Positions 3,080 to 7,328 of a DNA stretch of 7,340 bases are shown here, in pieces. Under the pieces are notes generated by a model. It was not told the DNA's origin. It ran no database searches and saw only the letters and a list, made by a program, of their open reading frames with translations. The stretch is from NCBI GenBank assembly GCA_945949655.1, contig CAMFFG010000058.1, positions 1 to 7,340 of the forward strand, written 5' to 3'. This stretch comes from an uncultured Peptococcaceae bacterium (GTDB lineage Bacteria > Bacillota > Peptococcia > Peptococcales > Peptococcaceae). The first letter of the stretch is position 1; each line of letters opens with the position of its first letter. A program made the translations under genes and the position numbers.

Positions 3080-4610
3080 ATGTCTAATCAAAATGACAAC
3101 GCAGTTGAATGTAGCCCGAAAAAGAAAAACAAAGACACGATGTACTACGTTCACACCCTGATTGCATTTGCAATCACAGCAATTTTCTGGTTCATGCCAC
3201 CGATTGATCCAATCACCCCGTTAGGGATGAAATGTGTGGGTACATTCATCAGTATGATTTACTTGTGGACCCTGGTTGATGTTATGTGGCCATGCTTATA
3301 TGGTCTGTTTATGTTTGGTATGGCCGGTTATGCAGGCGAAGGCTACGCTGGCATGAAAGCTGTATGGCTGAATGCGGTTGGGGTTGACACTGTACTGATA
3401 ACCCTGTTTGCCATGGTTTTATTTGGCGCCGTATCGGAAGTTGGCGATACCGAATATATTGCAAAATGGTTCCTGACCAAAAAAAATCTTTGCTGGCCGT
3501 CCGTATGTATTCCTGGCTGTATTCTATGCCTGCTGCTTTGTACTGTCCGCACTGGTTAGCCCAATCACTGAATTAATTATTCTGTGGCCAATTGCACTGG
3601 GCTTAATGAAAACACTAGGTATTGAACGCTGTGATAAAATCTGGCCATTCTTCTTTGTAGGGATGTTCCTGGTATCTACACTGGCCCAGCCGTTCTTCCC
3701 ATTTATGGGCGCACAGCTGATTCCAATCAGTGCTTTCGCTGCTATGACCGAATCTATGGGTAACCCGATGAACGTTCCGATCTTGTCCTACATGCTGTTA
3801 GACTTAATCATGACCACTCTGGTTATGGCTGTTTATCTGTTAGCTATGAAGTTTGTTCTTCGCGTGGATGTAAGCAAACTGAAAGCCGTTAACCCGGAAC
3901 AGATTGAAGTACAGATGCCGCTGCCTCCGATGAATTTCCAGCAGAAAGCTTATCTGTATATGATTCCTTGCTATCTGGTTATGTTATTAATCCCGAACTT
4001 TATTAAAGGTAATCCTATTAGTACCTTGTTATCCACAATGGGTACGCTGGGTGTAACTGTATTCTGGGTTCTGGTTTTCGTTATTGTTAAATGGAACGGA
4101 AAACCATTACTGGACTTCAAAGAAGTTGCCTACAAACAGATGAACTGGGGTATCTTCTTCATGATCGCCGCAGCTGTATACGGCGCTAACACACTGGCTA
4201 ACCCGGAAACTGGCGTTGTTAATTTCCTGGTAAAAGTTCTGCAGCCTGTACTGGGCGGCAGACCTGAATGGCTGTTTGTATTGCTGATGTTTACTGTAGC
4301 TCTGGTTATCACCAACTTTGCAAACAATGCCGCAATGGCTGTTACCTTATTGCCTGTTGCTCTGGCTTTCTGCCAACAGCTGAACATTGACCCGATTCCA
4401 GTTGCAATGGGTATCGTCTTAATGGTATTCGTAGCTATGCTGACACCGTCCGCATCTCCACACGGCAGTATGATGCACGGGCGTAAAGATATTTACAGTA
4501 CACAGGAAATTCTGAAGATTGGTTTCCCAATGTGTGTTGTTACCTTACTGTTATACAGCTTTGTTGGATATCCTCTGTGCAAATTCTTACTGGCTGTAAT
4601 CGGTGCATAA
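3080..4610 (+). pseudogene. SLC13/DASS-like (ion transporter superfamily) anion permease, interrupted by a one-base frameshift
   Basis: The start is ATG 3080, with AAAGGAG 8 bases upstream; an in-frame ATG at 2978 has no such site. The first frame runs about 135 codons to a run of eight A (3479-3486), then reads 24 unrelated codons to a stop at 3557-3559. The correct sequence resumes in another frame with IFAGRPYVFLAVF and continues to 4610. Removing one A restores a continuous 509-residue polytopic membrane protein, normal for the family. The 3' part has its first ATG at 3606 without a ribosome site, so it is not a separate gene. The protein has a charged N-terminus (1-20), then helices from about residue 22. 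Family positions occupied by Ser-Asn-Thr in carboxylate transporters read SPITEL (160-165) and NFANNAAMAV (412-421), followed by TPSASPHGSMMHG (455-467). Uptake of an organic anion is likely; substrate and coupling ion are unknown. The frameshift may be a sequence error, a real mutation, or slippage. Confidence 0.85.
3479..3486 (+). other. A8 homopolymer at the permease frame break
   Basis: Eight A follow ACC. Seven would read Thr-Lys-Lys-Ile-Phe-Ala-Gly and keep the permease frame; eight read Thr-Lys-Lys-Asn-Leu-Cys-Trp and run to a stop. The change needed is loss of one A (or gain of two). A run of this length is prone to sequencing miscount, replication slippage and RNA polymerase slippage. 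Confidence 0.9.
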
Positions 4611-5907: not shown

Positions 5908-6501
5908 TTACTGCGCCTCGCTTTCTGTCAGCCAGATATGAGCATTCGCTGCATAAACCGGCTGCGGAAACAGGGTGTGATAAATGGCGTCCAGCTCCTG
6001 CAGCAGCTGTTCATCGCTGCAATCTGCATTCAGCGGAAAATAATGCAGTACATAAGGCACACCGAACAGCACCGAGTACACCTTGGTGGGTCGCAATCCA
6101 TTGCGCTGATAAAACGCCACCCGACGGGCGCGGGTGTTCCGTTCGTCCTCCGAACTGCTTTTGTCCGGATCCTCCACCTCTGCCAGAATCCCGCTTATAC
6201 CGCTCCACATAGTCTTCATCTGAGCCAGACACTGGCTGCCATAACCATGGCTGCGATATTGGACGCACACTGCAAAATAATCCAGCAGTAATACACGGCC
6301 CTGCTGCGCTTTTACAAAAAATGTGTAGGCTGTCAGATTGCCGTTTTCATCAAACCATCCATAGGGCTCATACAATCCCTGCTCCATCAACTGATACAGC
6401 ACCGCCAGCGGCTTTACCTCTGCCGGCGGAAAATCCTGCTGCATATGCTGATGATAAATGTCTGCCACCTGCTCCGATGACAGCTTCTGATACGTTAACA
6501 T
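5908..6501 (-). CDS. GNAT-family N-acetyltransferase
   Basis: The product has 197 residues from ATG 6501, chosen because AGGAGG (6516-6511) lies 9 bases upstream; a longer frame to 6633 would overlap the barstar gene and has no such site. GNAT enzymes move an acetyl group from acetyl-CoA to an amine. The central strand LLLDYFAVCVQYRSHGYGSQ (71-90) is motif A, with the CoA pyrophosphate-binding R83-S-H-G86-Y-G88. RRVAFYQRNGL (126-136) is motif B. Residues YGWFDENGNLTAYTFF (47-62) fit the preceding beta hairpin. The C-terminal 40 residues extend past the core and may form a further helix. The substrate is unknown. It lies 49 bases downstream of the inhibitor gene, and overlaps no other gene. 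Its link with the next gene suggests a shared process such as modifying and exporting a small amine, but that is only inference. Confidence 0.9.
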   Translation of the reverse strand: MLTYQKLSSEQVADIYHQHMQQDFPPAEVKPLAVLYQLMEQGLYEPYGWFDENGNLTAYTFFVKAQQGRVLLLDYFAVCVQYRSHGYGSQCLAQMKTMWSGISGILAEVEDPDKSSSEDERNTRARRVAFYQRNGLRPTKVYSVLFGVPYVLHYFPLNADCSDEQLLQELDAIYHTLFPQPVYAANAHIWLTESEAQ

Positions 6502-6550: not shown

Positions 6551-6820
6551 TTATATTTCAATTTCCACGGAGAGCGCTTTATTTTGCTCTTCCGCCTCCT
6601 GAAACAGCTGCAGCACCATTTCTCCATACCCACCTAACTGGCGCGTTAAAACGTCGCTTTTTTCCACTATGATCTGTAACGGCTGATTCCACTCGGTTAA
6701 GATATCCCACAGTGCGTCCAGATTTTCACCATAATACTCCGGAAGCTGTAGCTGTCGGGCAATCTCTTTATGCAGCTGCTGCCGGTCGGCCAGAATATCG
6801 CCGTTTAACCTTAATTCCAT
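6551..6820 (-). CDS. Barstar-family ribonuclease inhibitor
   Basis: At 89 residues it has barstar length and aligns nearly end to end with the Bacillus amyloliquefaciens protein: LPEYYGENLDALWD (26-39) is identical to it, and VLQLFQEA (69-76) matches the later helix. Barstar binds barnase tightly in the cytoplasm and blocks its active site. The residues known to make the contact are kept at the same numbers: Tyr29, Asp35 (which fills the phosphate pocket), Trp38, Asp39 and Trp44. Glu75 is in the position of barstar Glu76, with a one-residue gap between. The two cysteines of B. amyloliquefaciens barstar are absent. The ATG at 6820 follows AGGAG (6834-6830) at a spacing of 9. The gene starts 25 bases after the stop of the RNase gene, so they form a toxin-immunity pair in RNase-first order. 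Confidence 0.97.
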   Translation of the reverse strand: MELRLNGDILADRQQLHKEIARQLQLPEYYGENLDALWDILTEWNQPLQIIVEKSDVLTRQLGGYGEMVLQLFQEAEEQNKALSVEIEI

Positions 6821-6845
6821 TGCTCCCCACTCCTCATACGGTCAT

Positions 6846-7328
6846 CTAATATAACTGTTCAAAACTCTTATAATGATCCGCAGTATAATAGATCAGCCCA
6901 TCGTCCGAATAGATCAGCCGTTCACCGTCTCGATAGCCGCCTGTATAATTGACATCACACTCATAGTAGGTGCGTCCTTTTTGCACTGGCAGCAATCCTT
7001 CCCGGTTGCCAAACACATCGCCGCCGATACTCATGCCTGGCGCCACTTCATCCAGATTGCCGGCCTGGCTGTCCCAGCCCAGTGCTTTTGCCTCTTTTTT
7101 GGTGATAAAATTATCGGGCAGATGCCCATACGTATGCAGATAATCAGCCACCTCCTGCGGCGCAGTATAATAGCCATCCTCCGCCAGCACAGCGCTTTCA
7201 GTTATATCCGTACCATTCTGAGCAGAATCCCCTGCCGCCGTGCAGCCTGCTATCAGCAAGCCAGTCAGCAGCAACAGCGCCACTAAAAGCCGCAGATATT
7301 TGTTTCTGGCCAAACTGTTCATCCTCAT
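6846..7328 (-). CDS. Barnase-family guanyl-preferring ribonuclease with a lipoprotein signal peptide
   Basis: The product has 160 residues. Residues 58-160 align without gaps to mature barnase with a constant offset of 50. PDNFITKKEAKALGW (71-85), GGDVFGNREGLLP (102-114) and the end TADHYKSF (149-156) are near-identical. All known catalytic or substrate residues are kept: Lys77 (barnase 27), Arg109 (59), Glu123 (73, general base), Arg133 (83), Arg137 (87) and His152 (102, general acid). Barnase cleaves RNA 3' of guanine and is lethal in the cytoplasm without barstar. The N-terminus has Arg/Lys (2-13), an apolar core (14-26) and the lipobox LIAGC (25-29). Cleavage before Cys29 and lipid attachment are expected, with a polar linker (30-52) holding the enzyme off the membrane. 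Start: ATG 7328 or ATG 7322; GGGGGG directly precedes the first. The frame stays open to the window edge, so a start further upstream cannot be excluded, and the promoter lies outside. Confidence 0.95.
   Translation of the reverse strand: MRMNSLARNKYLRLLVALLLLTGLLIAGCTAAGDSAQNGTDITESAVLAEDGYYTAPQEVADYLHTYGHLPDNFITKKEAKALGWDSQAGNLDEVAPGMSIGGDVFGNREGLLPVQKGRTYYECDVNYTGGYRDGERLIYSDDGLIYYTADHYKSFEQLY

What the first reader, a model, noticed from the sequence alone, without database searches (positions are those of the whole stretch)
6551..7328. Membrane-tethered barnase with its own barstar
The RNase keeps every catalytic residue of barnase in an ungapped alignment, and the adjacent gene keeps the barstar contact residues. 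Classical barnase is freely secreted; here a lipobox (LIAGC, residues 25-29) and a polar linker of about 24 residues predict a lipid-anchored enzyme. A surface RNase could act as a contact weapon against neighbours or digest RNA for nutrients, with the inhibitor guarding the cytoplasm during export. In a diderm Firmicute it might reach the outer membrane. The residues are seen directly; the role is inference.
Basis: partly seen in the sequence, partly recalled or inferred. Interest (0 to 1): 0.75.

Follow-up and report, generated by a model that had tools for sequence, protein, structure and literature searches.

The report
Membrane-tethered barnase with its inhibitor
This bacterium has neighbouring genes for a barnase-type RNA-cutting enzyme, predicted to be fixed to its own membrane by a lipid, and for a matching inhibitor that likely protects the cell before export; among the related genes sampled, forms predicted to be membrane-tethered outnumber those predicted to be freely secreted like the textbook enzyme.

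Summary
6846-7328(-) encodes a barnase-family RNase (PF00545) with an intact active site, a lipobox (LIAGC) and a low-confidence linker. 6551-6820(-) encodes a barstar with the main contact residues, except G43->E and E80->Q. The bare pair is known and widespread. The tether is the less familiar part, and it is not a quirk of this window: of 80 related species-level loci, 64 have a lipobox and 12 more a predicted uncleaved membrane helix. In a phylum-wide sample, 14 of 21 PF00545 copies are predicted tethered and 5 free. Seven of seven two-copy Paenibacillaceae genomes (two genera) pair one predicted-tethered copy with one free copy. RNase and barstar co-vary: of 9,440 column pairs the strongest is barnase 59 x barstar 38, a known contact; the window carries R59/W38/E76. 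The diderm idea is not supported: no Omp85 or LpxC in 8 of 8 genus genomes, while the window's own genome has Lgt and LspA. With a linker of about 27 residues in a predicted monoderm, a contact weapon looks less likely than an envelope RNase that scavenges RNA; that role is inferred. SignalP, lipid labelling and enzyme assays could not be run.

The parts
6846..7328 (-). RNase gene: barnase-family (PF00545) preprotein of 160 aa
   Evidence: model matches solved barnases at rmsd 0.8, 57% identity
7242..7328 (-). Predicted lipoprotein signal peptide with lipobox LIAGC (residues 25-29); Cys29 at 7242-7244 is the predicted lipidation site
   Evidence: sequence; strict motif in 405 of 20,000 shuffles; lipobox in relatives
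7161..7241 (-). Polar linker, residues 30-56, predicted disordered at least over 30-44
   Evidence: pLDDT under 50 at 30-44, first domain helix at 57
6849..7160 (-). Catalytic domain, residues 57-160, with K27, E73, R83, R87, H102 and Y103 (barnase numbers) intact
6551..6820 (-). Barstar gene (PF01337), 89 aa, predicted cytoplasmic inhibitor of the RNase; 25 bases separate it from the RNase stop codon
   Evidence: co-variation with the RNase across 91 pairs
5908..6501 (-). GNAT-like acetyltransferase gene downstream on the same strand; below Pfam's cut-off; not claimed to be part of the system
   Evidence: PF13508 22.1 bits against cut-off 27; same order in L006, L007, L008

Best explanation
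The two genes encode a barnase-family RNase that is predicted to be lipid-anchored on the outer face of the cell membrane, and a barstar that likely binds and blocks it in the cytoplasm before export. Predicted path: the barstar neutralises RNase that folds early or fails to leave; the preprotein passes through Sec; Lgt lipidates Cys29 and LspA cleaves before it; the enzyme then hangs on a linker of about 27 residues between membrane and wall. There it would cut RNA that diffuses in, probably with barnase's preference for guanine. Most likely use (inferred): holding the products of environmental RNA close to the cell for uptake, without losing the enzyme to the medium. Shown by calls: genes, domains, active-site residues, lipobox, the pair, its conservation and co-variation. 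Inferred: lipidation, location, activity, inhibition, role.
For: Active site kept: K27, E73, R83, R87, H102, Y103 in 101 of 101 copies. Adjacent barstar in 91 of 101, 73 of 80 in the species-level loci. Barnase 59 x barstar 38 ranks first of 9,440 column pairs and 59 x 76 fifth; the maximum over 12 random re-pairings was 0.203 against 0.304 observed; R59 touches W38 and E76 in the known complex (PMC11408511, passages). Predicted tether in 76 of 80 species-level loci (64 lipobox, 12 helix) and 14 of 21 phylum-sample copies. Lgt and LspA in the window's own genome. 7 of 7 two-copy Paenibacillaceae genomes hold one predicted-tethered and one free copy.
Against: No SignalP, labelling or assay. 10 of 101 copies have no adjacent barstar. 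No recurrent nucleotide-uptake neighbour was seen (a weak test). 5 of 21 phylum-sample copies look freely secreted. 3 of 8 genus genomes lack the RNase, one of them 96% complete. The co-variation rests on few independent changes: 9 at position 59, and only 2 contrasts on well-supported branches.
Confidence: 0.55

Rival explanations
1. It is a contact or vesicle-borne weapon: the lipid-anchored RNase reaches neighbours by contact or in membrane vesicles, and the barstar also serves as immunity against kin.
For: RNase (66-74% identity) and barstar (65-75%) differ more between close relatives than EamA (83-85%) and serS (95%); RNase-barstar specificity positions vary across the family; barnase domains occur on larger toxins in other systems (PMC3482391, passages), and L108 and L092 show larger fusions.
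Against: No delivery domain in the window's protein. 27 residues span at most about 10 nm (my arithmetic), less than a typical Gram-positive wall (recalled). Same neighbourhood in L006, L007 and L008. The GNAT gene diverges as fast (65-71%). G007's lone barstar-family protein is not a cognate orphan immunity gene by profile (E 0.004).
Confidence: 0.2
2. It is an envelope barrier: the tethered RNase destroys RNA entering the wall space (for example RNA from lysed cells or vesicles) to protect the cell, not to feed it.
For: Same location and linker as the best explanation; no uptake genes recur nearby.
Against: No match for either protein among 5,027 defence models; no neighbour points to a specific threat.
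Confidence: 0.12
3. The lipobox is not used: the protein is cleaved by ordinary signal peptidase and freely secreted like barnase.
For: A strict lipobox arises by chance in 2% of shuffles of this N-terminus (405 of 20,000); true free forms exist in the family (5 of 21).
Against: Lipobox (looser pattern) in 7 of 7 copies of the taxonomic family and in 64 of 80 related loci; Lgt and LspA present.
Confidence: 0.08

Closest known systems
Barnase and barstar of Bacillus amyloliquefaciens
   Same: RNase domain (57% identity over the aligned model), active site, adjacent barstar, R59/W38/E76 contact class
   Different: Barnase is freely secreted (PMC8294519, passages); here lipobox and linker predict a lipid anchor; W71, A74, W94 and S57 differ
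Simple barnase-barstar gene pairs and Tox-Barnase/Imm-Barstar of polymorphic toxin systems (PMC3482391, passages)
   Same: Toxin gene followed by inhibitor gene; the paper calls the simple pairs widely distributed
   Different: No trafficking module or variable toxin tip here; the lipobox passages of that paper seen concern MafA, Amoebophilus effectors and Imm65, not barnase
Binase and balifase (Bacillus pumilus, B. licheniformis; PMC8837141, passages)
   Same: Same RNase family
   Different: Secreted and without an own barstar according to that paper; here the barstar is adjacent
EndA-type membrane-bound nucleases of streptococci (recalled, no call)
   Same: A nuclease held at the cell's own membrane facing outward
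   Different: Unrelated protein acting on DNA; comparison from memory only

Membership tests
Barnase-type RNase (PF00545) | Domain score over the curated cut-off | tested here: met
   71.8 bits against 24
Barnase-type RNase (PF00545) | Catalytic residues K27, E73, R83, R87, H102 | tested here: met
Barnase-type RNase (PF00545) | Barnase fold | tested here: met
   model against PDB: 1brg_A, E 3.1e-16, rmsd 0.8
Barnase-type RNase (PF00545) | RNase activity | not testable with these tools
   needs an assay
Barstar (PF01337) | Domain score over cut-off and D35/D39 kept | tested here: met
   78.3 bits against 23.4
Barstar (PF01337) | Binds and inhibits the adjacent RNase | tested here: inconclusive
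   co-variation supports it but independent contrasts are few; no binding assay
Bacterial lipoprotein (Sec/SPII) | Hydrophobic stretch followed by a lipobox Cys | tested here: met
   IAGC at 26-29 after a hydrophobic helix
Bacterial lipoprotein (Sec/SPII) | Genome encodes Lgt and LspA | tested here: met
   both in G000
Bacterial lipoprotein (Sec/SPII) | Lipid on the Cys, membrane location | not testable with these tools
   needs labelling; SignalP not on hand
Outer-membrane lipoprotein of a diderm Firmicute | Outer-membrane machinery (Omp85, LpxC) | tested here: not met
   0 of 8 genus genomes; controls ring in 7 and 4 of 14
Polymorphic toxin system | N-terminal trafficking module with a variable C-terminal toxin tip | tested here: not met
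   160 aa, only PF00545 matched
Known anti-phage defence system | Match to a PADLOC model | tested here: not met
   0 families for either protein

The most novel reading that the evidence does not exclude
Tethering, not free secretion, is the normal state of barnase across Bacillota: a large family of envelope RNases held by a lipid or, interchangeably, by a membrane helix, each with a co-adapted barstar. The freely secreted Bacillus enzyme is the derived special case, and Paenibacillaceae that keep both forms divide the work between cell surface and medium.
Probability: 0.4. Interest if true: 0.6.

Novelty: new variant of a known kind. Interest (0 to 1): 0.45.

Why it matters
Barnase-barstar is a textbook model of folding and binding, but what cells use it for is unsettled (recalled). 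If most natural barnases are tethered, the question becomes what an RNase does at the cell's own membrane, and culturable Paenibacillaceae that carry both forms would let it be tested. The R59/W38/E76 and Y59/Y38/D76 classes also offer natural, possibly mutually exclusive RNase-inhibitor pairs.

Tried and rejected
Diderm/outer-membrane location: rejected. Orphan immunity in G007: rejected; its barstar-family protein matches the barstar profile made here at only E 0.004, and none of the window's genes was found in the 14 kb around it. Net charge as a mark of tethering (lipobox mean -6.9, helix -6.4, free +3.0): not kept; Paenibacillaceae lipobox copies reach +5 and three free copies are negative, so it mostly follows lineage. 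Recurrent nucleotide-uptake neighbours: none recognised; the two largest clusters there appear to be overlapping frames of the RNase-barstar region, so it is a weak test. PADLOC: no match. Promoter and terminator scan: not used, since the upstream region lies off the contig.

Literature: searches were seen as listings with abstract starts; of five papers only passages were seen: PMC3482391, PMC8294519, PMC8837141, PMC6385678, PMC11408511. In searches I saw no description of a lipid-anchored barnase; the library lacks most subscription journals, and I did not open the other listed papers.

Rows dropped or moved: 7 duplicates and L125 (no N-terminus) from the pooled set; L097, identical to L045; L103 and L104 (weak, internal stops) from the phylum sample; L129 moved from lipobox to free and L092 to fusion after reading; L036 and L042 have unusual lipoboxes (VMGC, LFGC) and were kept as lipobox; four helix rows are doubtful (L047, L054, L058, L078). 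In one search the printed barstar labels between 29 and 44 were one off; one search has the right ones. In one search the transporter's N-terminal piece was translated one base out of frame, so those rows are not used.

Full report
What is there. The window is the whole of contig C58 of an unnamed draft genome (G000, 1.55 Mb, 68% complete). Its nearest named relatives are Peptococcaceae MAGs (UBA7185; RGIG1748 and RGIG7294 from goat and water-buffalo caecum). Two genes on the - strand encode a PF00545 ribonuclease (6846-7328) and a PF01337 barstar (6551-6820). The RNase aligns without gaps to barnase residues 9-108. An AlphaFold2 model from a 39-sequence alignment (mean pLDDT 85) has a helix at 10-27, a stretch under pLDDT 50 at 30-44 and a confident domain from 57 on; it matches solved barnases at rmsd 0.8 and 57% identity. 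G000 has one copy of each gene.

Active site and inhibitor. In 101 non-redundant copies (window, L005, L006-L085 and 19 of the phylum sample) K27, E73, R83, R87, H102 and Y103 never vary; D54 is kept in 92 and E60 in 98. An adjacent barstar is present in 91 of 101; the ten without are L052, L054, L056, L058, L067, L078, L082, L099, L101 and L102. L099's 13-kb neighbourhood holds two barstars beside the other RNase copy. Across the 91 barstars G31 and N33 never vary, D35 is kept in 88, and D39 in 88 with E in the other 3.

Do the pairs fit each other? Position 59 of the RNase is R in 42 and Y in 52 of 101. Of 84 pairs with R or Y, W38 is present in 31 of 39 R59 pairs and 1 of 45 Y59 pairs; E76 in 27 of 39 and 4 of 45. 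By mutual information with background correction over 9,440 column pairs, 59 x 38 ranks first (z 7.1) and 59 x 76 fifth. Several pairs ranked second to fourth are not contacts that I know of. In 12 random re-pairings the highest value of any pair was 0.203 against 0.304 observed. The link holds within lipobox copies alone (22 of 28 against 0 of 36) and in the rest (9 of 11 against 1 of 9). R59 makes cation-pi and ionic contacts with W38 and E76 in the known complex (PMC11408511, passages). Against this: position 59 changes only 9 times on the tree and only 2 contrasts are independent on well-supported branches, too few for a test, so shared ancestry may explain part of it. The window is of the R59/W38/E76 class, like barnase.

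The tether. A strict lipobox at a fitting place appears in 405 of 20,000 shuffles of the window's N-terminus. By a looser pattern, 7 of 7 PF00545 copies in 13 genomes of the family have one. Among the 80 loci kept from the species-level collection (80 of 261 confirmed, so biased to close relatives) I count 64 lipobox, 12 predicted uncleaved helix, 3 ordinary signal and 1 fusion. In a sample not chosen by likeness to the window, 398 genomes of the phylum, 19 have PF00545 with 23 matches; leaving out two weak broken ones, 21 remain: 9 lipobox, 5 helix, 5 ordinary signal, 2 larger fusions; the window's own copy is one of the 21. Over the 120 pooled copies the count is 79, 19, 19 and 3. On the RNase-domain tree tethered versus free needs 2 changes while lipid versus helix needs 11 (8 without four doubtful rows; if those are called free, tethered versus free needs 4). 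The tree is weak (106 columns, 17 of 117 inner branches well supported) and unrooted, so it cannot say which state came first. All these classes are predictions from motif and hydrophobicity, with the non-lipobox ones sorted by eye.

Two copies in one cell. Of 59 Paenibacillaceae-type genomes (family of G073; the family name is inferred from named relatives), 22 have PF00545 and 7 of these have two copies. All seven pair one predicted-tethered copy with one ordinary-signal copy: G073, G382, G436 and G447 with a lipobox copy, G112, G437 and G448 with a helix and polar-linker copy. The seven fall into two genera, so this is at most two independent cases. Of the 15 one-copy genomes, 7 have a lipobox copy, 7 an ordinary signal and 1 (L125) cannot be read. 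This is the best hint that tethered and free forms do different jobs.

Envelope and setting. Omp85 and LpxC are absent from 8 of 8 genus genomes, three of them at least 90% complete, while the same searches ring in 7 and 4 of 14 control genomes. Lgt is found in 7 of 8 and LspA in 6 of 8, including G000. The cell is therefore predicted to be monoderm with lipoprotein processing. RNase, barstar, GNAT and EamA genes keep their order in L006, L007 and L008; in L009, of another genus, only the RNase and barstar were matched. Five of 8 genus genomes have the RNase; of the three without it one is 96% complete.

Mechanism. I commit to an envelope RNase with a cytoplasmic guard: barstar blocks unexported enzyme; Sec, Lgt and LspA place the enzyme on the membrane's outer face; the linker lets it work in the space under or within the wall on RNA that arrives there. 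The role, RNA scavenging, is inference. A contact weapon is less likely because the linker is short, no delivery part was found and the locus is shared with close relatives. Faster divergence of both proteins than of EamA and serS is the main point in the weapon's favour, although the GNAT gene diverges as much.

Known or new. The simple pair is known and called widely distributed (PMC3482391, passages). I saw no description of lipid-anchored barnases in searches. I call it a new variant of a known kind; the breadth of tethering is the part a specialist may not expect.

Noticed in passing
P0002-P0041 and others: Tandem double-barnase proteins of about 270 aa: of the 120 best-listed homologues (of 5,950), 44 have two RNase domains. 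Of these 12 have a lipobox and 32 do not (P0082 of them lacks an N-terminus), while 76 of 76 single-domain ones have a lipobox.
   Followed up: partly
L015:949-2241, L021:4245-5540, L028:5195-6583, L031:4170-5498: Barstar and the queuosine gene queA run in one open frame in four Oscillospiraceae loci (Pfam confirmed for L015). Barstar also runs into an M32 carboxypeptidase in L048 and an FMN reductase in L033.
   Followed up: partly
L059:2244-5345: A barnase domain at the C-terminus of a clostripain-family (C11) peptidase with a predicted membrane helix, followed by a barstar.
   Followed up: partly
window 3080-4610 (+): DASS-type transporter gene split over two frames around 3480-3560; relative L006 has one open frame of 514 aa. 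True break or assembly error not decided; not mended.
   Followed up: partly
window RNase residue 124 (barnase position 74): A Cys directly after the catalytic Glu73 in 81 of 101 copies, Ala in 20; meaning unknown.
   Followed up: no
L052, L054, L058, L067, L078, L082: Six of the seven species-level loci without an adjacent barstar share an upstream gene that looks like RlmH (name recalled from its sequence): a lineage that may have lost or moved the inhibitor.
   Followed up: no
L143, L145: Two Paenibacillaceae-type clusters hold a free and a helix-anchored barnase plus two barstars within 10-13 kb.
   Followed up: partly
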